A DNA stretch of 54,872 nt from Anaerolineales bacterium (GTDB taxonomy: Bacteria; Chloroflexota; Anaerolineae; Anaerolineales; Villigracilaceae), in NCBI GenBank assembly GCA_016934715.1, contig JAFGSI010000085.1, forward strand, positions 1 through 54,872, given 5' to 3'. Below the pieces are notes generated by a model. That model was not told the DNA's origin, did not search any database, and saw only the letters and a list, made by a program, of their open reading frames with translations. Below, in pieces: positions 40,369 through 51,233 of this stretch (the first letter of the stretch is position 1; each line of letters begins with the position of its first letter). The translations under genes were made by a program, and so were the position numbers.

Positions 40369-40788
40369 GGAATTGTGGACCAAGGCAGCGAGAACAACCG
40401 TTCCACTTTTGGAAAATAGCACTCCTTTGGGATGGGCGCCGATAACTGCTTCTTGCAGAAAGCGCTGAACTGAAGCTGCCGTAAAGCAGGTGGAAGCGAT
40501 GGAGCCGCCCCAATGGGGATGTTGTTGCCGATTACGAGGATCATGGCGCCCTTCGAAAAAAGTGCGGGGTGCGAGAGGCCCTTAAAAACAAGCCCCGCCG
40601 GACCGACACCCGAGATGACCAAACGAGTTGCTCATGCAGCTTTTCCCAAACAGCGTGCGCCCGACTGGTGGGAGCCGCCGCGTTTTCAAGCAGTTGCGTT
40701 GGTGAAAAGTTGGTTCCGTCAAAATGGCGCTGCCTCGTCCCGCCCACCAGAGGAGAACGGACACCATTGGACCGTAGAATAGGGGATC
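40369..40788. other. Gene-free left border of the island
   Basis: 420 bases between the M23 gene and the first island gene. Some frames remain open (for example 40518-40805 on the plus strand) but their residue use is not protein-like. It holds the 15-base word GGATGTTGTTGCCGA (40517-40531), found again at the other border. No promoter of quality was seen; AGGGGATC precedes the next start. Confidence 0.55.
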
Positions 40789-41478
40789 GTGAAAAACATG
40801 GATGATGACCTGCAACTTCTTGTTCATTTCTTCAATGACAAAGAAACCCTTTTCAAGACGATCACGATGGCAGGAATTTCCCAGGTAGCTGAAATTTGCG
40901 ATAAGATCGCATCCCAAAAAGGGTGGTATTGGCCAAGATTCGCCGAAAGCGAACGGCATGATTATTTGAAGAGAAGACGATTCGTCGAAAAAGAACTGTA
41001 TGAGGACTACACACATGAATACGGGAGCTTGAAGGAAAAAATCCCTGTATACTTTTATCTTTATCCCAACATGACAAAGCAGAAGGCCATCGAATTGGGA
41101 CAGCAAAGAATGAACCATGGTGAAATAGAACCTCATGTACTGGTGATAAAGATACAGGATATCAAAGACATCAGAAACATCACATTTACCCTGAACGACA
41201 GTCACAGCGCATATTGGAAAAGGGCAATGGAATCAGGAATACCGTGCCGAGGAGATGGGAATGGTCATGTTGTTTTAGAAGACCATAACAAGGTCTTCCC
41301 ATTTTCGATGATTGAACAAATCCATCAGAAGTATAAAGCGCAGCATATCAACTACGAAATCCAGATCTGGGATTATCAGTTGCTTGAGACGATGCGTTAT
41401 ACGCTTTTGGGCAAAGAAGAAACGTCAACACAGCCCGGTGCCGGCTCCAGCGGGCGGTCGCTCCGCTCCCGCCGATGA
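40789..41478 (+). CDS. Unknown cytoplasmic protein in low-GC island
   Basis: 229 residues from GTG 40789 (a second start, ATG 40798, is possible). Codon and base use are clearly AT-richer than in the core genome. It is soluble, rich in Lys/Glu/His/Tyr, with EKIPVYFYLYPNM near 85, then EPHVLVIKIQDIKDIRNITF and YEIQIWDYQLLETM. I recognise no family. The last 17 residues (from STQPGAG) are encoded partly by the short repeat at 41440-41486, so the ancestral C-terminus was probably nearer residue 212. The next gene follows 53 bases on. Confidence 0.7.
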   Translation: MKNMDDDLQLLVHFFNDKETLFKTITMAGISQVAEICDKIASQKGWYWPRFAESERHDYLKRRRFVEKELYEDYTHEYGSLKEKIPVYFYLYPNMTKQKAIELGQQRMNHGEIEPHVLVIKIQDIKDIRNITFTLNDSHSAYWKRAMESGIPCRGDGNGHVVLEDHNKVFPFSMIEQIHQKYKAQHINYEIQIWDYQLLETMRYTLLGKEETSTQPGAGSSGRSLRSRR

Positions 41479-41486
41479 GACAGGCC
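41440..41486 (+). repeat. Short dispersed repeat, copy 1
   Basis: 47 bases starting GCCGGCTCCAG and ending ATGAGACAGGCC, matching 42095-42139 at most positions by eye, with the shared core CGGTCGCT. It covers the end of the unknown gene and sits before the RDD gene. Confidence 0.6.
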
Positions 41487-41531
41487 TTCGGCCCGTTCGA
41501 TGAGAGAAACCCAACAGAAAGAGACAATACC

Positions 41532-42080
41532 ATGCCTATCCTCGAAAGGACATCTCCCAGCATCGGACGGCGTATTGCTGCCTATCTTTTGGATTACTTT
41601 CTTCTGTCGGTGGTGCTCATCTCTTTACAGGGGGTCATTTTTCTGGTGGGTCAGGGCTTCCCCTACAACCTTCTGCATACTGGCCCACAGATTGAGCTAT
41701 GGGTGGTCTTGAGTATCTCTTTGCCCGTTTGGCTGTATTTCGCGCTTGGTGAATGTTCATCCCATAAAGCAACTCCAGGGAAACGACTGTTCAGGCTGCA
41801 GGTAACGAATCTCAGGGGTGCTAGAATCGGCTTTGGGAGGGCCATCATCCGCACCGTGATCAAGTTGATCCCCTGGGAATTGACACATCTGACACTCATG
41901 CTGCCTGTTCCGTTGTGGTGGGATTCCTCGCCTGGTCTGCGTTCAGGCATCCTGATTGTGTATGTTCTGATCGGAATCTATATCCTAACAATGTTCTTGA
42001 ACAAACGGCGGCAGAGTGTCCACGATCTGATCGCACAAACGATAGTAGTCGATACGCGCAAGCAAGAGAAGGCCCGATAG
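41532..42080 (+). CDS. RDD family membrane protein
   Basis: 182 residues from ATG 41532 (MPILERTS); longer frames run back over the upstream repeat. The RDD signature is present: IGRRIAAYLLDY with Arg13/14 and Asp21, three or four transmembrane helices, then GKRLFRLQVTN, typical of the family's second conserved region, and RRQSVHDLIAQTIVV. RDD proteins are poorly defined; some are sodium/proton antiporters. It lies in the AT-rich island, followed by the second repeat. Confidence 0.85.
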   Translation: MPILERTSPSIGRRIAAYLLDYFLLSVVLISLQGVIFLVGQGFPYNLLHTGPQIELWVVLSISLPVWLYFALGECSSHKATPGKRLFRLQVTNLRGARIGFGRAIIRTVIKLIPWELTHLTLMLPVPLWWDSSPGLRSGILIVYVLIGIYILTMFLNKRRQSVHDLIAQTIVVDTRKQEKAR

Positions 42081-42094
42081 AAGCGACGGAGAAC

Positions 42095-42139
42095 ACCGGT
42101 TCCAGGGGACGGTCGCTACGCTCGCCGGTGAGCCAGGCC
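42095..42139 (+). repeat. Short dispersed repeat, copy 2
   Basis: 45 bases starting ACCGGTTCCAG and ending GTGAGCCAGGCC, closely similar to 41440-41486. It begins 15 bases after the RDD stop, so each copy follows the 3' end of a small gene. Confidence 0.6.
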
Positions 42140-42204
42140 GTTGGTGCGCTTTTGCGATGCCCACAGGTAACAGCCGTATGACCTGAGGGAAAACACGACG
42201 ACGA

Positions 42205-42522
42205 AGCGCGGAATGCTTTTCTTGTTCCTCATTTTTGGCGTTTTTCGCCATGGCAGGAATTCTATTCTTTGGGTTGTGAAAACGGGGGGCCGGGGAATGG
42301 GCATTCTCAGCAAGGATCGTCTGGATAATCGCAGGTACAGCAGCCTTCCTGTAGGCGTTGGCGCAACCTGAGGATAGAAAGGCAAAGACTTCGAATCGGA
42401 GAATCGCGTTCCTGCTTTACTCTGGCTTGTTCTGGCAGCCGCGGCAGCTCAGTTCTACGGACTAGTGGGGCGATTGGCATGGGTATCGCCATTGCCGAGG
42501 TGTATACCGAAGCCCATCTGTG
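42205..42522 (+). pseudogene. Degraded membrane-protein gene (several frameshifts)
   Basis: Pieces of apparently coding sequence lie in different frames: MLFLFLIFGVF near 42210, FAMAGILFFGL near 42245, ARIVWIIAGTAAFL near 42308, ALAQPEDRKAKTSNRRIAFLL near 42358 and GAIGMGIAIAEVYTEAHL ending in TGA at 42522. Read with frameshifts, they look like a small protein with three hydrophobic segments. This is pattern reading on my part; the interval may simply be noncoding. Confidence 0.35.
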
Positions 42523-42611
42523 ACCCTATACAGGCTAAGATCAGGAAAAATCGCCATGGGTAGGGTTAATTTTGATGAGTAAGAATGGCAGCAATCGTGT
42601 CAACCGACCCA

Positions 42612-42953
42612 CTAGCTTTCTTTTTTCTTCTCAGGCATCTTCCACTTCAAAGTCACTTCGTAATTGACATTCACACCGAGCTTACCAATCGCCAGGTTGC
42701 CCACTTCGCCAACCGTATTGATCCCGAACTTGATCTCTGCCTCGCTGACCTTCAGGCTATCTAATTCAGCGATCAGTATCTTCGCTTGGCTCTTGACAGC
42801 CTTGAAGGCATCTGGGAAACTCTTCTTCGCTTTTACCACAGCCGCTTCTCCCGGCTTGCGGGATGCCCGGACGATCCCCCCGGTTTCTTCTTCGGTTGCT
42901 TCGATCATGACGGTCGTGCCATCACCCATATCGTATTCGACGTAAGTAGGCAT
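42612..42953 (-). CDS. Trypco1-type (trypsin-co-occurring) domain protein
   Basis: 113 residues from ATG 42953 (MPTYVEYDMGDGTTVMIEA); AGGA lies 8 bases upstream, better than the ATG at 42959. It matches the whole-length pattern of the CU044_2847/Trypco1 family: an N-terminal beta hairpin, a central helix (ALIKSQAK-like segment FPDAFKAVKSQAKILIAEL) and the ending SEAEIKFGINTVGEVG then NYEVTLKW. Families of this kind were named because they co-occur with trypsin-like and STAND NTPase proteins in predicted conflict systems. It is 24 bases downstream of the membrane-protein gene and divergent from a trypsin-NB-ARC-WD40 gene, exactly that context. Biochemical role unknown. Confidence 0.82.
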   Translation of the reverse strand: MPTYVEYDMGDGTTVMIEATEEETGGIVRASRKPGEAAVVKAKKSFPDAFKAVKSQAKILIAELDSLKVSEAEIKFGINTVGEVGNLAIGKLGVNVNYEVTLKWKMPEKKKES

Positions 42954-42977
42954 TTTCATGTTCCTTTTCTTATAGAC

Positions 42978-44132
42978 CTACGGCAAGTAAACAGGCCGTT
43001 CAACTTTCTCCACGCCACGTGAAGCCTTGACGATCCCGGAGGGCTCTGCGGCCTCCTGCAGTTCTTCGGGCGTCTTAGCAGAAAGCGAGGTCTGGATAAT
43101 CTTCTCCCAGGCATAAAACAGCCCGAGCAGACCGATCAGGAGGAACATCACCTGGGAGACCTGGGTCACGGCACCTGAGATGTAATCCCCATTGAACAAC
43201 TCCTGGAACAGAACAATCAGGGTGAGCAGCTCTCCTACAACAGCCCAAGTAACGACCGCGCTGCCTATAACAAACGGCAGAACCAACAATGGCGTCTTTC
43301 CATCCTCTTCCAGGATCAGTTTTCCGTTCTTCTTGGGTTCCTTGGCAATGGCGTTCAACGCTGATAAGAGGAATGGCGCCAGCACAATAAGGATTGGGAA
43401 CAGCGTGTTGAGGGCTTGAAAACCATGTTCGCCGAGAATGACCGGCTTCTCGGGAATGATCTTGGAGGAAGCTACCACATTCAGCAGACCTCCTACCGCT
43501 ACAAAGGTCGACGCCCAGTTTTCTTCGAACTTCCACTTGAGACCCTTCATACGGCAAGCGAGAGTCTGCCTGACACCCAGTTTCTTCTCTCGCTTGAACT
43601 TTACAAAAATACCTGAGAGGCTGGCAACGAAGAGAAGCACAAACCCGACGATGAAGCTCCATACAAGGATCCAGTTTATGTCCGGGACAAGAACTCCCAG
43701 AATCCGATCCGGTGGAAGGTCGGGCAATGGTTTCAGAGTAAGTGAGGCAAATGCCGGTTCGATCCCGGCCGCCTCAACGACCAAGTAACCGGATGTTTCT
43801 TCGGAAACCAGATCGGGAAATTCAAGGATGAACTGCGCGATGGCAAAGGCGCCTATGCTCGTCGTTCCACCCTGGACATACACGACGATGCTTCCTCCCT
43901 CGTTGCTTACCGCCCGGAAGGCAAGCGCATCGATGGCCTCGCCGTTATTCCGGACAGTGACAACTGTCAACATGGAGGTGGAGACCGCGTCCTCCGGTTC
44001 CGCCATGATAGATTCGCCCAGAATTTCCAGACGAGGGGCTGCCATCGCTGGAGACACCCGCAAGAAAAATAGGAGCGTACAACCAATCACTGCCAGGATC
44101 ATCCACTGCTTATTGTTTGTTCGTTGGCTCAT
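42978..44132 (-). CDS. Secretory multi-pass membrane protein, probable partner in the conflict module
   Basis: 384 residues from ATG 44132, which has GGAGGAAG about 10 bases upstream; a longer frame to 44177 would begin upstream of the promoter. An N-terminal signal or transmembrane segment (about 10-32, ending SPAMA) precedes a beta-rich outer domain of about 120 residues (TVVTVRNNGEAIDALAF), like a CARDB or Ig module. Then come about five membrane segments between 150 and 355 with basic, cytoplasmic-looking loops (FKREKKLGVRQ, KEPKKNGKLILEEDGK). The tail is polar. No family recognised. First gene of an operon with the Trypco1 gene. Confidence 0.8.
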   Translation of the reverse strand: MSQRTNNKQWMILAVIGCTLLFFLRVSPAMAAPRLEILGESIMAEPEDAVSTSMLTVVTVRNNGEAIDALAFRAVSNEGGSIVVYVQGGTTSIGAFAIAQFILEFPDLVSEETSGYLVVEAAGIEPAFASLTLKPLPDLPPDRILGVLVPDINWILVWSFIVGFVLLFVASLSGIFVKFKREKKLGVRQTLACRMKGLKWKFEENWASTFVAVGGLLNVVASSKIIPEKPVILGEHGFQALNTLFPILIVLAPFLLSALNAIAKEPKKNGKLILEEDGKTPLLVLPFVIGSAVVTWAVVGELLTLIVLFQELFNGDYISGAVTQVSQVMFLLIGLLGLFYAWEKIIQTSLSAKTPEELQEAAEPSGIVKASRGVEKVERPVYLP

Positions 44133-44165
44133 TTTGACTGAACTTCCTCCAACAGGTTTCTTATA

Positions 44166-44194
44166 ACTATAAGTCAAATTTACCCAACGGACAA
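44166..44194 (-). promoter_or_regulatory. Promoter of the membrane-protein/Trypco1 operon
   Basis: On the minus strand TTGTCC (44194-44189), a 17-base spacer, and TATAGT (44171-44166). Transcription near 44159 would exclude the upstream ATG at 44177 and supports the start at 44132. Confidence 0.65.
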
Positions 44195-44269
44195 TAGACT
44201 TATGAAACTTGTCGCCTGCTTCGCCGTTTTGATGTACACTATTTCTAACTCATCCTGCGATGCACAGAT

Positions 44270-47200
44270 ATGTCCAAACTGCCTGAAAGTGCCATCCTTC
44301 GCATCTTCGATCAAGAGCGCAACCCCGTCGGCGCAGGATTCTTGGTCGCGAATCGACTGGCCGTAACTTGTGCACACGTAATTGCCACTGCACTCGGGCT
44401 TGAGGAAGACCATCCCAAAAAACCAAAGGCTCTGATTCATTTTGACCTTCCCCTCGTCGAGCCTGGAAAAACAATTACTGCCAAGATCATCTTCTGGGAT
44501 ATGGAGCAAGATGTCGCTGGGCTGAAGATCGATGGTGGCATTCCCGAGGATGCAAGCCCTGCCCCGCTCAAGCGAGCTGGCAGTCTGTGGGGAAATACCG
44601 TCCGAGCATATGGATTTCCACCGGCTGAAGATTACGAGATGGGTGTCTGGGCAAAAGGAGTCTTACGCTCGGACAATGACAAGGGCTGGTTGCAGATCGA
44701 TAAAACCGAACGCGGAGGGTACGCCATTCAGCCAGGTTTCAGCGGCGGGCCGATTTGGAACGACAAGTTGCAGGGGGTGGTAGGGATGGCCATCGCGGCA
44801 GACACGGCTGAAGGAGGACGTGCCGCCTTCATGATCCCTGTGAGTGTGATCAAATCTGTTTGGGAAGACCTCCCCACCCCACTTGCTCCTGCCTATGGCA
44901 TTCCTGACCTACCCCCACATTACATCCCCCGCACCACTGCGATCAATTACCTGAAATCCCGTTTGTTCGCGCAAGGGAAGATAGGCATCTCAGGCAAGGG
45001 GGGGCGGCTCGGCCTGCAGGGCATGGGCGGAATCGGAAAATCGGTCTTGGCAACTGCGCTGGCACACGATCCAGAAATTCACGAGCAATTCCCGAATGGA
45101 ATCTTCTGGATCACAGTCGGGCAGACCCCAGATCGTAAAACCTTGCAGGTGAGATTGGCCAAGTTTGCTGGTGCAGAAGAGACGGGCTATACAGATGAAC
45201 TACTTGCAAAGGACAGCCTGCGTAGTCTGTTTGAGAACTGGACCTGCCTGCTAGTATTGGATGATGTTTGGAACGTGGAAGACGCCAGTGCTTTAGATGT
45301 GCTCGGAGAGCAGGGGTGCCTTTTAATAACTACTCGGAATGCGGACGTGGTAAAGGGTTTGAGCGCAGAGGAATACAGTCTGGATTTCCTCACTGATGCT
45401 CAGGCTTTGATCCTGCTGGCTGATTGGGCAGGGCAGAAAGTGTCAGACTTGCCCCTGGATGCCCATTCGGTAGTCCAAGAATGCGGAAATCTGCCACTAG
45501 CCCTTTCAATGGTTGGTGCCTTTGTGCAGCACAACCCCGAAAACTGGGAGCGCGTCCTATATCGTCTCCGCAACGCAGACTTGGGGCGCATCACGCAGAT
45601 TTTCCCGGATTATCCTCACCGGGACTTGCTGCGCGCCTTACAGGTCAGCGTGGATGCTCTGCCGGAAGCATGGCAACCATACTACCTTGAACTGGCAGTA
45701 TTTCCAGAAGATACGCCCATCCCTGTCTCAGTAATGGAAACTTTCTGGGCACTAGAGGGACTGAATAAGTATGATGTCAGGGACATCGTCGATGCACTGG
45801 TCGACCGATCTCTCGCGCGCATTGACAAGGATGGCAATCTAACCCTGCATGACCTGCAGTACGACTACATTCGAAAACAAGCTCGGGATCTGAAGCCTCT
45901 TCATCAACGCCTGCTGGAAGCCTATTGGAAGAAGTGCCCCAATGGCTGGCATAGCGGTCCCAATGATGGCTATTTCTTTGATCATCTCAGTTATCACTTG
46001 CATACAGTTGGGCGAGACCATGAGCTTGAGCAATTGCTGTTGCAATTCTCGTGGATGACAGCCAGATTGGAAACGAGTGGCATAACGGCATTGCTCAATG
46101 ATTATGAAAATATCCCGTACGGTGAAGAATCCGAACTTGGTATAGTGCTCAGCGGGCTTCGAATGGCTGCGCCCGTCATCCGAAAACCCGTAGACCTGGC
46201 TGGCCAATTATTCGGACACTTGCTGACGCGACATTCTCAGGGCATCCAGAATTTTCTTGCCGGTATTTCGCCCGGGGATCCCTGGTTGCGCCCATTGAAT
46301 CTTGCTTTACGACAAGCTGGAGACCCATTCCTGGGTATTTACCGCCCACACTCGGGACAAATTACGGCCGTTACTTTGCTTCCGGATGGTTCACGAGTAG
46401 TGGCCGCATCTCTCCAAAAGACAATAACGCTCTTCGATTTGGAAAGTGGTAACGAGATTCGCGAGTTCCAAGATCCTAGAAAACCAACTGAGGTTGGAGA
46501 GGATGCCCATCCAAAAGCCGATTCTCGCAGTAGTGATGAGGGGCCTATTGGCAGCAGATCCCTACCTTCCGTCTTCGTAACACCTAACGGCCGTTTCATC
46601 GTTTGCACGTTTGGGGATGGTACTTCCTGTGGTTGGAATTTGGAGAACTCCGAAGTTACTTACGCCCTTGACAACATAAAGGCAGTGATGCCATCAGTGG
46701 ATGGCAATTCCTTGATCACTGTTGAAAACAATCATCTGAAGATTCGAGATTGGGCCAGTGGTGAAATATTACAATCCCTTGAGGACGTAGGCGAAAACAT
46801 TCAATCAATCGCAACAATGGCGGATGTCGACCGGGTCATTGTCGTAACAAACGAAAACTATCAGCATGATCTAAAGATCTGCAATATCAAAACTGGGAAA
46901 GTAGAGCAGGTTCTTCCTTGTGGATATCACGATGAGAAACAATGGATTTCCTGGAGCAGTTACGATACTTACTACGACGCTGGTGGCCGTTACGAAATTA
47001 TCCGCGATCGTACGATCAACGCCGTCGCACTGACATCAGATGACAGGTATATTGTCTCCGCATCACGAGATGGCTCATTGAAGGTTTGGGATTTGCAGAA
47101 AGAAGAGATTATCCAGACCCTTAGAGGCCATTCGGGCAGTGTCAATGCAGTTGCTCTTATCCCCGGTACCCTGTATGCGGTTTCTGGATCATCCGATAAA

Positions 47201-49279
47201 ACTCTCAAACTGTGGAATATTGAAAGTGGGAAAAACGTCCGCACCTTTACAGGTCATTCTAGCGAAATATGGTCTATCTCTGTAACACCTGATGGCAAAC
47301 GAGCAGTTTCTGCTGATAGAGATTCGTTGATCGTCTGGGATCTTTGCAGCGCCGAAGAAGATCATACGTTTGTCGGTTTCCAGCGAGAAATATTAAGACA
47401 TTTGAAAGCGATCCAGTTGAGGCGTCAGGACCGGAGCCCTTATTCAAGAGAGGTCGTGCCTGACGAGATCAGATTAGTTGCCCTGCATCCAAATGGCAAA
47501 CAACTCATTCTCGTCGACAAATTCAAGAGAAACGATGATGGAAGCGTGGGACCTTTATATCCATCGGATAAGGTGGATGAATCGAATCAACTAATGATAT
47601 GTGAGTTGGCTAGTGGCGCTATTAATCCTATTGCAACTGGGTTTCGTGGTACCGTAAATGCGATTACGCTGACTCCAGATGGGCAATATGTGATTGCGGC
47701 AGCCGCAGATAAAACTTTATATGCATCAAAGATTGATGTGGAAAATGAGGCTTCCATCCTCGATAGTCAATCTGGTGATATCACTGCCATTGCTTTAGCG
47801 CCTGATGGCAGTTTTGTTGTTTTTGGTTCTTCTGATGGAAAATTAAAGGCATTGGGTTTTGATCGCCGGATGAAGGTTCCCGTTCTGCAAGGTGAAATGG
47901 GTTCTGTAAGTGCAGTGGCGATAACACCAGATGGCAGGTATGTAATTGCCGCATCAGCACAGGGGATTTTGAAATTATGGGACTTGAGCAGTGGCAATGA
48001 ATTGCATACCTTCAGAGGCCATTCGGGTTACGTGCACAGTATCTGTATTACACCAGACAGCAAATATATTATCTCTGCTTCTGTCGATACAACGCTAAAG
48101 GTTTGGAATATAGAAAAGAGGGAGGAACTTGTCACTCTCCATGGCCACAGCGGTTCTGTGAATGCAGTTGGTGTTACACCAGATGGAGGACTTGTCGTTT
48201 CTGCCAGCGACGATGAAACCATCAAGGTGTGGGATATCCAACGTCATGAGGTTCTTCAAACTCTAAAAGGGCATTTGGGCGCCATAAATGCCGTCATCGT
48301 GACTCAGGATGGGAAACATATCATTTCTAACGGCCCTGTTCTGGAGGGTAGCTTTGTTTTAGCATGGAATATTGAACGCGGCAACCAGACAAATAACCTT
48401 ATGTGGCACTTTGGTGCAGTAAGAGCCATAACATTATCGAGAGATGGTAAACACGCGGTGTCGGCGTCCGAAGATGGAACACTAAAGGTGTGGGATCTAA
48501 ACCAGGGGACTGTCGTTCATGTACTTAAGGGACATCGTAGCAAGGTGTTTGGCGCTGCGATTACCCCAGATGGACGATTTGTCGTATCAGGTTCAGGTGG
48601 ACATGGGGATAACTCCATTAAGCTATGGGACCTGAATGATGGAAGTTTGGTCAGGAACCTACCAGGGCATTCTGGTCTCTTCTCCTCCGTAAACGCAGTG
48701 GCGATAACGCCTGATGGTAGGCATGTTATTTCAGCCTCAGGGGATAACACCCTGAAAGTCTGGGAAATGGATGGTGGACAGGAAGTTCTTACTCTCGAGG
48801 GACACTCAGGTCCCATAAATGCAGCGGCTGTAACGCCAGGTGGCAAACGCATTGTTTCTGCGTCTGCTGATAAGACCTTGAAGGTTTGGGATCTGGAAAG
48901 CGGGAAAGAGATTCATACCCTCAGCGGACATTCAAGCTATGTAAACGCAGTGGCCGTAATACCGGATGGCAAATACATCGTCTCTGCATCCGCAGACAAA
49001 ACCCTGAAAGTATGGGACTTGGAAAGTGGGGAAGAAGTTCATACCCTCAGCGGACATTCAAGCTATGTAAACGCAGTGGCCGTAATGCCGGATGGCAAAC
49101 ACATCGTTTCTGCATCCGCAGACAAAACCCTGAAAGTATGGAGTGTGGATAGTGCAGAGGAGATTATTAGTTTTGCAGCAGAAGCAGGCTTACTTTGCTG
49201 TGCTACAGTAGAAGGAGAAAAGATAATGGCTGGTGATGAAGAAGGGTGGTTATATGTTTTCCAATTGATAAAGGAGTAA
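44270..49279 (+). CDS. Trypsin-like peptidase / NB-ARC STAND NTPase / WD40 fusion (NLR-like)
   Basis: 1669 residues. Residues 1-200: trypsin-like peptidase with a complete triad, His36 (VTCAHV), Asp81 (EQDVAGLKI) and Ser158 (PGFSGGPIW). Residues about 245-560: NB-ARC ATPase with P-loop GMGGIGKS (Lys257), Walker B LLVLDDVW (Asp331/332), LLITTRN, the GLPL-like GNLPLALS and LHDLQYDYI in the winged-helix region. Residues about 690-1669: WD40 blades of about 42 residues with GHSGSVNAVAV and DKTLKVWD, enough for two or three propellers. This is a signalling or defence ATPase layout: sensor propeller, switch and protease output. AT-richer than the core genome. No ribosome site; a weak -10 lies at 44235-44240. 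Confidence 0.93.
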   Translation: MSKLPESAILRIFDQERNPVGAGFLVANRLAVTCAHVIATALGLEEDHPKKPKALIHFDLPLVEPGKTITAKIIFWDMEQDVAGLKIDGGIPEDASPAPLKRAGSLWGNTVRAYGFPPAEDYEMGVWAKGVLRSDNDKGWLQIDKTERGGYAIQPGFSGGPIWNDKLQGVVGMAIAADTAEGGRAAFMIPVSVIKSVWEDLPTPLAPAYGIPDLPPHYIPRTTAINYLKSRLFAQGKIGISGKGGRLGLQGMGGIGKSVLATALAHDPEIHEQFPNGIFWITVGQTPDRKTLQVRLAKFAGAEETGYTDELLAKDSLRSLFENWTCLLVLDDVWNVEDASALDVLGEQGCLLITTRNADVVKGLSAEEYSLDFLTDAQALILLADWAGQKVSDLPLDAHSVVQECGNLPLALSMVGAFVQHNPENWERVLYRLRNADLGRITQIFPDYPHRDLLRALQVSVDALPEAWQPYYLELAVFPEDTPIPVSVMETFWALEGLNKYDVRDIVDALVDRSLARIDKDGNLTLHDLQYDYIRKQARDLKPLHQRLLEAYWKKCPNGWHSGPNDGYFFDHLSYHLHTVGRDHELEQLLLQFSWMTARLETSGITALLNDYENIPYGEESELGIVLSGLRMAAPVIRKPVDLAGQLFGHLLTRHSQGIQNFLAGISPGDPWLRPLNLALRQAGDPFLGIYRPHSGQITAVTLLPDGSRVVAASLQKTITLFDLESGNEIREFQDPRKPTEVGEDAHPKADSRSSDEGPIGSRSLPSVFVTPNGRFIVCTFGDGTSCGWNLENSEVTYALDNIKAVMPSVDGNSLITVENNHLKIRDWASGEILQSLEDVGENIQSIATMADVDRVIVVTNENYQHDLKICNIKTGKVEQVLPCGYHDEKQWISWSSYDTYYDAGGRYEIIRDRTINAVALTSDDRYIVSASRDGSLKVWDLQKEEIIQTLRGHSGSVNAVALIPGTLYAVSGSSDKTLKLWNIESGKNVRTFTGHSSEIWSISVTPDGKRAVSADRDSLIVWDLCSAEEDHTFVGFQREILRHLKAIQLRRQDRSPYSREVVPDEIRLVALHPNGKQLILVDKFKRNDDGSVGPLYPSDKVDESNQLMICELASGAINPIATGFRGTVNAITLTPDGQYVIAAAADKTLYASKIDVENEASILDSQSGDITAIALAPDGSFVVFGSSDGKLKALGFDRRMKVPVLQGEMGSVSAVAITPDGRYVIAASAQGILKLWDLSSGNELHTFRGHSGYVHSICITPDSKYIISASVDTTLKVWNIEKREELVTLHGHSGSVNAVGVTPDGGLVVSASDDETIKVWDIQRHEVLQTLKGHLGAINAVIVTQDGKHIISNGPVLEGSFVLAWNIERGNQTNNLMWHFGAVRAITLSRDGKHAVSASEDGTLKVWDLNQGTVVHVLKGHRSKVFGAAITPDGRFVVSGSGGHGDNSIKLWDLNDGSLVRNLPGHSGLFSSVNAVAITPDGRHVISASGDNTLKVWEMDGGQEVLTLEGHSGPINAAAVTPGGKRIVSASADKTLKVWDLESGKEIHTLSGHSSYVNAVAVIPDGKYIVSASADKTLKVWDLESGEEVHTLSGHSSYVNAVAVMPDGKHIVSASADKTLKVWSVDSAEEIISFAAEAGLLCCATVEGEKIMAGDEEGWLYVFQLIKE
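48767..49144 (+). repeat. Three tandem 126-base WD40-coding units
   Basis: Units at 48767-48892, 48893-49018 and 49019-49144, each one 42-residue blade. The last two differ at about 11 of 126 positions by eye, clearly more alike than other blades of the propeller, indicating recent tandem duplication or conversion within the gene. Confidence 0.8.
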
Positions 49280-49400
49280 GCTAAAAATCCACTGACTATC
49301 TATACTGTGACTTGCTCCTACTTATGAAGAAAGGGTGTACGCGTTTCACCCAATCAGTCCTAACCACTTGCTATGTGGGGGCTACTGAAGTTGACCCGAT

Positions 49401-49613
49401 TTGGATGTTGTTGCCGAATTCGATTACACAGGGGCAAGAGCTGCAAAGCTGGACGTTCGGGTGGTAACACAGGGAATGCCCATTTCACAAATCAATCAAG
49501 AGAATCCCTTCTTTCAACCCCTGTTTGGTTTTGCCCTTCCGGTATTCATTTTCAATGTAGCTGTGTTGACACTACTCGGAATGTGGTGGAAATATGCAAG
49601 TGCCCACCGGTGA
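49401..49613 (+). pseudogene. C-terminal fragment of a membrane protein
   Basis: 70 residues from a TTG; an in-frame stop lies just upstream (49392-49394). The reading DVVAEFDYTGARAAKLDVRV and a hydrophobic C-terminal helix FGFALPVFIFNVAVLTLLGM look like the end of a real membrane protein whose 5' part is missing. It could also be a short intact gene. No ribosome site. No family recognised. Confidence 0.4.
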
Positions 49614-49750
49614 TTGCCCGCATCTCAGGCAGCCAGGAAAAGGTGGCGTGGGAAAGGCTGGATGACCATCCAGGAAAGAGGAACGCCCGTTTCCCATCAT
49701 GGAGCACGCAGGCCACGGAGCAGGAGGGACCGGGCTGGCCCGGTCGGTTT

Positions 49751-49825
49751 TCAGGCCGAGCGTGCGCCCGGCGTGAGGGAAGCGAGATATTCGTTCACTG
49801 CTCGGTCCGGTTCTTCCACCGGCAT
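49751..49825 (-). pseudogene. Possible N-terminal scrap of a tyrosine integrase
   Basis: 24 codons from ATG 49825 to [23 protein letters not shown] then ARSA. The phrase A[12 protein letters not shown] resembles the N-terminal core-binding domain of phage-type tyrosine recombinases, which would continue with a helix absent here. The evidence is thin and rests only on this short match by memory. Confidence 0.25.
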
Positions 49826-49962
49826 CTTGGCAAAGATGTCCGTTAGCGGTATATTCCACCTGGCCCTGCCTCCCGGGGATGGTTGGTGCGCCAACCAATT
49901 TGTGTCACCGCTGGCAGCGTTTTTACCGGAACAAACCTGCTGGGTATCACAGACGGGAGCCC

Positions 49963-49990
49963 TTGACGCATCGAACATCTGTGCTATACT
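49963..49990 (+). promoter_or_regulatory. recA promoter with SOS-like box in the spacer
   Basis: TTGACG (49963-49968), a 16-base spacer, TATACT (49985-49990). The spacer holds CGAACATCTGTGCT (49972-49985), which matches most positions of the CGAAC-N4-GTTCG LexA box of Gram-positive-type SOS systems. Location between the hexamers would let a repressor block polymerase. The leader to the ATG is about 145 bases. Confidence 0.65.
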
Positions 49991-50141
49991 TGCCGGGTAC
50001 ACTGCTTCGCGTGTAAAAAACAGTTTGAATCGGGCGGGACCTGCCCGTTGGGGCGAAAGCGCAATTCGTGGGCGAAGGCTGCCCCAGGAAGCCCCGCCAC
50101 CGAGTGGCCGGGGAGTGTCACAATCGACCAGAGAGGTAAAA

Positions 50142-51233
50142 ATGGCCCGTAAATCTTCATCTGATTCCAGCGTCGACGAAGCCCGTCGCGCCATGCTCGA
50201 AAAAGCCGTCGGCGACATCGTCAAACGTTATGGTGACGGCTCGATCATGCGTCTGGGGGAAGCCACCAGCATGGTCGTGGACGTGATCCCCACCGGCTCC
50301 CTGTCCCTCGACCTGGCCCTGGGAATCGGCGGCATCCCGCGCGGACGCATCACCGAGATCTACGGCCCGGAATCATCGGGCAAGACCACCATCAGCCAGC
50401 ACATCGTCGCCGAGGTCCAGAAACTGGGCGGCACCGCCGCCTTCGTGGATATGGAACACGCCCTCGACCCGTCCTACGCCGCCAAGTGCGGGGTCGACAT
50501 CGAAAACCTGCTCGTTTCCCAGCCCGACACCGGCGAACAGGCCCTCGAGATCACCGAGACCCTGGTCCGCTCGGGGGCAGTCGACCTGGTGGTGATCGAC
50601 TCGGTCGCCGCCCTGGTGCCGCGTTCCGAGATCGAAGGCGACATGGGCGACGCCACCATGGGCGCCATGGCCCGCCTGATGTCCCAGGCCCTGCGCAAGC
50701 TCTCCGGGGCCATCAACCAGACCAAGACCTCCGTCCTCTTCACCAACCAGCTGCGCCAGAAGATCGGCGTCATGTTCGGCAATCCCGAGACGACCACCGG
50801 CGGCAACGCCCTCAAGTTCTATGCCTCCGTGCGCCTGGACGTGCGCCGCATCCAGTCGATCAAGATCGGAGCCGAGATCGTTGGCAACCGCACGCGCGTG
50901 CGGGTGGTCAAGAACAAGGTTGCCCCGCCCTTCCGAACCGCCGAATTCGACATCATGTACAACGAGGGCATTTCCAAGGTCGGCGACCTGGTCGATCTGG
51001 CCACCGAACTCGGCATCCTCGACAAGCGCGGCGCTTTCTATTCCTACGGCGAAGTGCGCATCGGCCAGGGTCGTGAGAATTCCAAGGAATTCCTGCGCCA
51101 GAACACCGACTTGGCCGATGAGATCGAACTGGCCATTCGCCAGCAGGCTGCCGGCGGCACGTTGGCCGTGCCGCTCGACGCAGAAGCTGCAGATGACGGC
51201 GACAGCAGCGAGGACCTCGGCGACGAGGCCTAA
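50142..51233 (+). CDS. recA: RecA recombinase
   Basis: 363 residues from ATG 50142 with GAGAGG 6 bases upstream; the much longer in-frame extension to 49614 crosses the promoter and is rejected. It has all RecA landmarks: MRLGEA, the P-loop GPESSGKT at 75-82, [25 protein letters not shown], the L2 region with [17 protein letters not shown], and an acidic C-terminus (about 335-363). It forms filaments on single-stranded DNA for recombination and SOS induction. A lipoprotein gene follows 19 bases later. Confidence 0.98.

What the first reader, a model, noticed from the sequence alone, without database searches (positions are those of the whole stretch)
42612..49279. Divergent trypsin-NB-ARC-WD40 / membrane protein / Trypco1 module: candidate NLR-like conflict system
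Seen: an intact His36-Asp81-Ser158 peptidase fused to an NB-ARC ATPase (Lys257, Asp331/332) and a long WD40 array, divergent from an operon of a multi-pass membrane protein and a Trypco1-type protein. Known: Trypco1 domains take their name from co-occurrence with trypsin-like and STAND proteins in predicted conflict systems, and NB-ARC/WD40 proteins are classic threat sensors. Inference: WD40 blades sense an invader, nucleotide exchange oligomerises the protein, the protease is unleashed, and the membrane protein is its target or executes cell death.
Basis: partly seen in the sequence, partly recalled or inferred. Interest (0 to 1): 0.85.

Follow-up and report, generated by a model that had tools for sequence, protein, structure and literature searches.

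The report
Apaf-1-like bacterial sensor with built-in protease
A bacterium of the phylum Chloroflexota carries, on an inserted piece of DNA, a protein built like the animal cell-death switch Apaf-1 but with a protein-cutting enzyme in place of Apaf-1's usual front end, close to a small gene (Trypco1) that often sits beside this kind of protease, which makes it a likely single-protein immune or suicide device.

Summary
The 1669-aa protein (44270-49279, +) has an intact His36/Asp81/Ser158 trypsin-like domain, an NB-ARC ATPase with Lys257 and Asp331/332, an Apaf-1-type winged helix and helical domain, and at least 17 WD40 units. Residues 209-612 match Apaf-1 at E 2.5e-47, so the order is Apaf-1's with the protease in place of CARD. 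A divergent gene pair encodes a membrane protein and a Trypco1 protein. These genes, an orphan ORF and an RDD protein form a low-GC insertion between an M23-peptidase gene and recA; in 10 of 12 relatives read those two genes are neighbours. Trypsin with Trypco1 is a real unit: trypsin lies within 2.8 kb of 24 of 38 other Trypco1 genes, the triad is kept in 23 of 24, and the parts fused to it vary (NB-ARC, nSTAND1, NACHT, TIR, SAVED, kinase). Conversely the same Apaf-like core carries other front ends (TIR, PNP). The three-gene module is not conserved: 0 of 6 other loci of the membrane family hold Trypco1 or trypsin. Best reading: an NLR-like conflict protein that clusters and switches on its own protease; Trypco1 is regulator or substrate; the membrane protein is optional. 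Nothing was tested at the bench.

The parts
44270..44884 (+). Trypsin-like peptidase domain (residues 1-205), triad H36/D81/S158, no evident signal peptide, GFSGGP around the serine
   Evidence: Pfam Trypsin_2 4.4e-14; residues read; alignment with 24 Trypco1-linked trypsins
44942..45655 (+). NB-ARC ATPase domain, P-loop GMGGIGKS with K257, Walker B LLVLDD with D331/D332
   Evidence: Pfam 8.6e-31; whole-genome search gives the same coordinates; residues
45674..45868 (+). APAF-1-like winged-helix domain (residues about 469-533)
   Evidence: Pfam PF21296 1.1e-7
45890..46114 (+). APAF-1 helical domain, APAF1_C (residues about 541-615)
   Evidence: Pfam PF17908 1.9e-12; Apaf-1 chains matched over 209-612 at 2.5e-47
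46328..49276 (+). WD40 beta-propeller array, at least 17 units; the last two full units 90% identical in DNA (looks like a recent duplication)
   Evidence: Pfam WD40 5.5e-132; unit scan; tandem array 48816-49141
42978..44132 (-). Membrane protein: signal peptide, outside segment, four or five membrane spans; member of an uncharacterised family; first gene of the divergent pair (TTG alternative start at 44177)
   Evidence: hydropathy and charge; relatives L072, L076, L079, L080, L086, L087
42612..42959 (-). Trypco1 protein, 115 aa, second gene of the divergent pair, 18 bp after the membrane gene
   Evidence: Pfam PF19493 1.9e-16; NCBIfam CU044_2847 family 3.7e-10
44133..44269 (.). Divergent intergenic region; one promoter-like match on the minus strand, no more than chance
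40369..50192 (.). Inserted block, GC 0.42-0.60 in 250-base steps from 40501, against 0.62-0.72 in most steps outside, between the M23-peptidase gene and recA
40789..41478 (+). Orphan ORF of the same insertion, 229 aa, no family over its cut-off; link to the system unproven
41475..42080 (+). RDD-family membrane protein overlapping the orphan ORF, same insertion; link to the system unproven
   Evidence: Pfam PF06271 1.1e-26; part of PADLOC PD-T4-6 6.8e-8

Best explanation
It is an NLR-like (STAND) conflict or immune protein that carries its own protease. Shown by sequence: a trypsin-like domain with intact triad, an Apaf-1-type nucleotide switch (NB-ARC, winged helix, helical arm) and a long WD40 array in one chain without an evident signal peptide; a Trypco1 gene 1.3 kb away; the whole on an insertion. 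Inferred: in the resting ADP state the WD40 array and arm hold the switch closed; a ligand of the WD40 array (phage product or host damage signal) opens it; ATP-bound subunits assemble into an Apaf-1-like wheel; the clustered protease domains become active and cut target proteins, stopping growth or killing the cell. Trypco1 is the protease's partner, most likely its substrate or a regulator that restrains or positions it. The membrane protein is a local accessory or possible target, not a fixed part.
For: (1) Domain make-up and residues. (2) A trypsin profile hit lies within 2.8 kb of Trypco1 in 24 of 38 other loci and none lies further out in the stretches held (up to 10 kb each side; 14 of the 38 have under 9 kb on at least one side); Trypco1 is upstream and co-directional in 19 of these 24. 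On plasmids, the 5 Trypco1 places read have a trypsin gene beside them, and the 2 trypsin places read (one of them the same locus) have Trypco1. (3) Triad kept in 23 of 24. (4) Of 21 trypsin proteins scanned, the fused parts include NB-ARC, nSTAND1, NACHT, nSTAND3, TIR, SAVED and kinase: a constant protease on varied switches. (5) The same core is fused to TIR (L098), PNP_UDP_1 (L099) or other N-termini in relatives: a constant switch with varied front ends. (6) Trypco1 and trypsin distances correlate, r 0.70 over 20 pairs, 0 of 9,999 permutations as high. (7) The M23-recA junction is closed in 10 of 12 relatives read. (8) The protease part matches the protease part of PADLOC's candidate RT-Protease_XI, 4.5e-12. 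[quoted passage not shown]
Against: No experiment. No match to a complete known defence system: PADLOC matches cover single domains only. Fourteen of 38 Trypco1 loci have no trypsin hit in the stretch held. The Trypco1-trypsin correlation may partly reflect shared ancestry of the hosts, and the window itself breaks it: its Trypco1 is closest to L058 (distance 0.32) while its trypsin is closest to L035 (0.53; L058 0.70), so the two may have been reassorted. The divergent layout is rare (1 of 24, L050). Trypco1's structure and role are unresolved. WD40 as sensor and a wheel-shaped assembly rest on homology to Apaf-1.
Confidence: 0.66

Rival explanations
1. A regulated protease switch for normal cell physiology or development (stress response, programmed lysis in the life cycle), not defence against invaders.
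For: STAND proteins also work as ordinary regulators (MalT, AfsR; general knowledge); the NB-ARC part matches AfsR and FxSxx TPR models, far below their cut-offs. Conflict systems of this class are reported enriched in multicellular bacteria (PMC7159879, passages), which fits both readings.
Against: Patchy presence: 10 of 400 genomes of the phylum match residues 1-621 at E 1e-40, 9 of them through the core, the window's own included; the insertion is missing from both same-genus genomes read; Trypco1-trypsin pairs lie on plasmids beside integrase or relaxase genes; trypsin is fused to TIR and SAVED in related loci.
Confidence: 0.2
2. The three genes are one dedicated three-part module, with the membrane protein as the protease's executioner target.
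For: Membrane gene and Trypco1 are 18 bp apart, divergent from the protease gene, and lie in the same insertion. One relative of the membrane protein, L072, lies directly upstream of a gene for a TIR_2-STAND-TPR protein (TIR_2 1e-9, AAA_22 4.8e-10, NB-ARC just below its cut-off). A cytosolic protease could reach loop 174-207 and the C-terminal tail.
Against: 0 of 38 other Trypco1 loci hold the membrane family; 0 of 6 other members of the family sit with Trypco1 or trypsin. Four of the 6 (L079, L080, L086, L087) have neighbours that read as ordinary or unclear (my reading of translations). L086 and L087 have the same signal-peptide plus multi-span layout outside such systems.
Confidence: 0.15
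3. The trypsin domain is not the effector but a peptide sensor or an autoprocessing switch that frees the NB-ARC-WD40 part, which acts otherwise.
For: In the MoxR-vWA ternary systems trypsin domains in the vWA effector position are reported to be nearly all inactive and thought to regulate or bind peptides (PMC7159879, passages). The residue six before the serine is Ala here and varies among relatives, so cleavage specificity is probably not that of digestive trypsin (position recalled from chymotrypsin numbering).
Against: Triad kept in 23 of 24 relatives; the N-terminal position is where NLRs carry effectors, and TIR or PNP occupy the same place on a related core.
Confidence: 0.12

Closest known systems
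Apaf-1 (animal apoptosome; AP-ATPase/NB-ARC family)
   Same: NB-ARC, winged helix, APAF1_C helical domain and WD40 propellers in the same order; 209-612 aligns to Apaf-1 structures at 2.5e-47
   Different: CARD replaced by a protease in the same chain, so no separate caspase need be recruited; at least 17 WD40 units (human Apaf-1 has two propellers, recalled)
Trypco1/Trypco2-trypsin conflict systems (VMAP ternary systems, Kaur et al. 2020, PMC7159879; passages read)
   Same: Trypco1 gene neighbouring a trypsin-like peptidase fused to a larger regulatory protein
   Different: No MoxR or vWA domain seen in the five genes of the insertion; the switch is an Apaf-like NB-ARC in the protease chain itself
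Trypsin-fused Hachiman, AVAST and Lamassu with upstream MBL-fold pro-nuclease (PMC12799240; passages read)
   Same: Trypsin-like domain fused N-terminally to a defence protein, constant partner gene typically just upstream, protease and partner co-evolve
   Different: Here the usual partner is Trypco1, about 110 aa with no enzyme match; no MBL-fold gene seen in the insertion
Bacterial CARD-NLR systems with trypsin-like peptidase (LypABC, Lysobacter gasdermin system; PMC13236601, passages read)
   Same: NLR-like ATPase plus trypsin-like protease linked to cell lysis
   Different: There the protease and the NLR-like protein are separate proteins and a CARD is involved; here one chain, WD40 instead of TPR-like repeats, no CARD or gasdermin found by Pfam
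nSTAND1-WD40 trypsin proteins beside Trypco1 in the same phylum (L036, L049, L058, L066)
   Same: Trypsin, STAND ATPase, WD40 array, Trypco1 next door
   Different: nSTAND1 instead of NB-ARC plus Apaf arm; Trypco1 co-directional upstream

Membership tests
Apaf-1-type NB-ARC (AP-ATPase) proteins | NB-ARC with P-loop and Walker B, followed by Apaf-type winged helix and helical domain | tested here: met
Apaf-1-type NB-ARC (AP-ATPase) proteins | C-terminal WD40 propellers | tested here: met
Apaf-1-type NB-ARC (AP-ATPase) proteins | N-terminal CARD (Apaf-1 itself) | tested here: not met
   N-terminus is Trypsin_2; so it belongs with the AP-ATPases but is not an Apaf-1
Apaf-1-type NB-ARC (AP-ATPase) proteins | Nucleotide-driven wheel assembly | not testable with these tools
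   needs purified protein
Trypco1-trypsin conflict gene pairs | Trypco1 domain over the family cut-off near a trypsin-like peptidase gene | tested here: met
   distance about 1.3 kb, with the membrane gene between
Trypco1-trypsin conflict gene pairs | Catalytically intact peptidase (residues) | tested here: met
   relatives 23 of 24; activity itself untested
VMAP / MoxR-vWA ternary systems | MoxR, vWA and VMAP genes in the locus | tested here: not met
   none listed for the five insertion genes (one search showed the best 25 of 67 families for the large protein, its first 707 residues were rescanned); three bpMoxR matches in the genome lie on other contigs and the model also rings in 12 of 14 control genomes
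Protease-nuclease AVAST/Hachiman type | MBL-fold nuclease gene beside the protease | tested here: not met
   none listed among the five insertion genes at E 0.01; AVAST Avs1b model 9.9 bits against a cut-off of 1500
CARD-NLR / gasdermin systems | CARD-like domain and gasdermin | tested here: inconclusive
   no Pfam match, but these folds are often missed by sequence
Anti-phage defence system | Demonstrated protection | not testable with these tools
   bench test needed

The most novel reading that the evidence does not exclude
Trypsin plus Trypco1 is a portable protease cassette of bacterial immunity, in which Trypco1 is the protease's dedicated substrate or safety catch. It has been plugged into NB-ARC, nSTAND1, NACHT, TIR, SAVED and kinase proteins, and here into a full Apaf-1-type chassis, giving an apoptosome that is its own protease.
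Probability: 0.35. Interest if true: 0.75.

Novelty: new variant of a known kind. Interest (0 to 1): 0.5.

Why it matters
Animal apoptosis splits switch (Apaf-1) and protease (caspase) into two chains. A bacterial chain with the Apaf-1 chassis and a fused protease would be a simple system in which to watch an Apaf-1-like switch turn a protease on. The Trypco1-trypsin pair, named from gene neighbourhoods in 2020, appears here with many unrelated sensor or switch domains, which makes the open question of what Trypco1 does directly testable in one protein pair.

Tried and rejected
Three-gene module: rejected as a conserved unit. Membrane protein relatives in genome contigs with the window sequence alone: none; with a three-row alignment four loci, two of them already known. 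One hit (G354, L073) lies in a frame without membrane spans and was dropped as chance. Membrane protein on plasmids: no match. AlphaFold of the membrane protein: mean pLDDT 44.7, not used for a fold search. AlphaFold of Trypco1: mean pLDDT 62.5, two strands, long helix, two strands; best Foldseek E 0.77, best VIA-align Z 3.4; profile against PDB sequences: best a designed helical bundle at 3e-4 over the helix, the rest at 0.099 or worse. No fold assigned. Orphan ORF 40789: no relative in 339 other genomes of the phylum; only weak matches below cut-off. Trypco2 in the own genome: none. Other NB-ARC in the own genome: one weak match over the cut-off and one below it, on other contigs, not followed up. 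Promoter and terminator scan: at chance level. First count of WD40 units gave none because the seed profile failed; repeated, where the shuffle control is not independent of the seeds.

Rows dropped before counts: from the Mantel test L041, L042, L044 (near-copies of L040), L056 and L066 (damaged Trypco1). The 24 of 38 count keeps near-copies (L040-L042, L044). Three of the 24 trypsin proteins (L041, L042, L044) were not given to Pfam. In L039 Pfam listed no trypsin at E 0.001, and for L049 and L066 trypsin is not among the 25 families shown; there it rests on the session's own profile. L067's trypsin and L071's NACHT are below the Pfam cut-off. Of 38 Trypco1 loci 14 have under 9 kb on at least one side. 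Plasmid records H2-H7, H10 and H15 were not opened; L150 (H1), chosen for NB-ARC, shows NB-ARC and TIR genes and no annotated Trypco1 and was not in the test.
Full report
What is there. The window is the whole contig C30 of a 4.09-Mb genome. The phylum is Chloroflexota: its phylum-mate G331 holds an 85,881-base contig that is public as 'Chloroflexi bacterium 13_1_40CM_65_17'. The three reported genes are present as described. The 1669-aa protein carries Trypsin_2 (4.4e-14), NB-ARC (8.6e-31), APAF-1-like winged helix (1.1e-7) and APAF1_C (1.9e-12), then WD40 units. Residues 209-612 align with Apaf-1 chains of the PDB at E 2.5e-47; the best plant NLR is at 6.3e-20 and AfsR at 2.5e-10. The residue before the catalytic serine is Phe in 14 of 25 aligned domains, the window's included, and Asp in none. 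In chymotrypsin this Asp takes part in zymogen activation (recalled), so control by assembly rather than by N-terminal cleavage is plausible; this is inference.

An insertion. GC is 0.42-0.60 in 250-base steps from 40501 to 50250, against mostly 0.62-0.72 outside. In the host family the M23-peptidase gene was found in 39 of 41 genomes, the own included. I fetched its surroundings in 12 of the other 38. In 10 of 12 recA follows after 143-328 bp, measured between alignment ends; in one (L142) after 2,130 bp; in one (L138) recA was not found in the stretch fetched. None of the 12 matched any of the five inserted genes by tblastn at 1e-4. In the window the gap is 9,824 bp. Both same-genus genomes read (G072, G781) have the short form. 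A 29-nt imperfect direct repeat (83%) lies near the two ends; its score exceeds those of 54 random pairs of stretches. So the five genes came in as a block, or in steps at one site.

Trypsin with Trypco1. Trypco1 occurs in 32 of 400 genomes of the phylum. Of the 38 Trypco1 loci outside the window, a trypsin profile hit lies in 24, within 2.8 kb in each case and none further out in the stretch held; Trypco1 is upstream and co-directional in 19, downstream in 2, convergent in 2, divergent in 1. The other 14 have none; in L061 the neighbour is an AAA_5 gene with a bpMoxR match below its cut-off. On plasmids the window's Trypco1 finds 6 records; 5 places were read (the sixth, H15, is in the same species as one of them) and all 5 have a trypsin gene directly downstream; the Streptantibioticus place found through the trypsin part also holds a Trypco1 hit, overlapping the end of the trypsin frame. 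The triad is complete in 23 of 24 aligned domains; the 24th (L049) lacks its N-terminus in my gene call. Pfam on 21 of the 24 trypsin proteins: NB-ARC with WD40 (L034), nSTAND1 (L036, L039, L049, L050, L056, L058, L066; WD40 in L036, L049, L058, L066), NACHT (L064, L069; L071 below cut-off), nSTAND3 (L055), TIR (L059, L063), SAVED (L065), kinase (L040), TPR (L046), AAA (L035), nothing else (L037, L060, L067). Trypsin and Trypco1 distances correlate with r 0.70 over 20 pairs, above all of 9,999 permutations. This cannot exclude host ancestry as part of the cause, and the window is an exception: its Trypco1 is nearest L058, its trypsin nearest L035.

The Apaf-like core with other front ends. Residues 1-621 as query find 10 of 400 genomes at E 1e-40, the own included. 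Six share the core at 44-46% identity. Of these only L034 (G192) has a trypsin hit; the other five (L093-L097) have other N-termini; in L095 the N-terminus gives sub-threshold matches to EAD10 and NNH2. Two more distant ones (34-35%) carry TIR_2 (L098, 4.5e-13) and PNP_UDP_1 (L099, 1.5e-8). G208 matched through its trypsin part. So front end and switch vary independently, as expected if the N-terminal domain is the effector.

The membrane protein. Its last 200 residues belong to an uncharacterised multi-span family, rare in the samples: 3 of 400 genomes in the phylum (the own, G331 and one chance frame), 2 of 110 in the class of G331 (G331 itself and G437), 4 of 299 in the class of L080's genome (two of them the starting genomes). 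Six other loci were read. L086 and L087 have the same layout with a signal-peptide-like start and an outside segment; by my reading of translations their neighbours are transporter, P450, glutamyl-tRNA synthetase and transposase-like genes. L080 and L079 have ordinary or unclear neighbours. L076 lies at a contig end; a gene 3 kb away reads like dndB (my reading, no search). L072 lies directly upstream of a TIR_2-STAND-TPR gene. None of the six has a Trypco1 or trypsin hit, and none of the 38 Trypco1 loci has the family. It is therefore not a fixed part of trypsin-Trypco1 systems; whether it works with this one is open.

Mechanism. [quoted passage not shown] LypABC and related CARD-NLR systems couple an NLR-like ATPase and trypsin-like proteases to lysis (PMC13236601, passages). 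Trypco1 was named by Kaur et al. 2020 for its neighbourhood with trypsin-like peptidases in predicted conflict systems (PMC7159879, passages), and was seen again beside such systems in PMC10907252 (passages). PMC8195603 (passages) describes trypsin among effector domains swapped at the N-termini of other bacterial NTPase systems. From these and the anatomy I take the window protein to be a one-chain protease-NLR: WD40 senses, NB-ARC switches and assembles, trypsin cuts. Shown: parts, residues, pairing, swapping, insertion. Inferred: trigger, assembly, substrate, outcome.

Known or new. Trypsin-STAND fusions and Trypco1 were predicted before. Searches for a trypsin-NB-ARC-WD40 protein or a Trypco1 function listed no paper that I recognise as describing this architecture. 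I read passages of five papers; the rest were seen as listings only, among them PMC3501461 on prokaryotic caspase homologues, which holds the words Chloroflexi, NB-ARC and WD40 and was not opened. I file it as a new variant: Apaf-1 chassis, protease in place of CARD, Trypco1 in a divergent pair with a membrane gene.

Noticed in passing
window 40789-42080: An orphan 229-aa ORF overlaps an RDD-family membrane gene inside the same insertion; no relative of the ORF in 339 other genomes of the phylum.
   Followed up: partly
window 40509-40537 and 49395-49423: Imperfect 29-nt direct repeat (83%) near the two ends of the insertion, scoring above 54 random pairs; possible trace of the insertion event.
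   Followed up: partly
L065 8348-10206: Trypco1 directly upstream of a trypsin-SAVED fusion, linking the pair to a sensor domain known from CBASS (recalled).
   Followed up: no
L149 (Nostoc plasmid pNsp_e) 5682-12574: Trypco1, then a trypsin-TIR-AAA_35 protein, then a 1442-aa AAA_35-WD40-Amidase_3 protein, in a row beside recombinase genes: a possible cell-wall-cutting partner.
   Followed up: partly
L086 9234-10397 and L087 9298-10440: Uncharacterised membrane family with signal-peptide-like start, outside segment and several membrane spans in Actinobacteria and Chloroflexota; no Pfam model over its cut-off.
   Followed up: partly
L142 between 1939 and 4069: Another relative has about 2 kb between the M23 gene and recA, which may mean a recurrent insertion site.
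   Followed up: no
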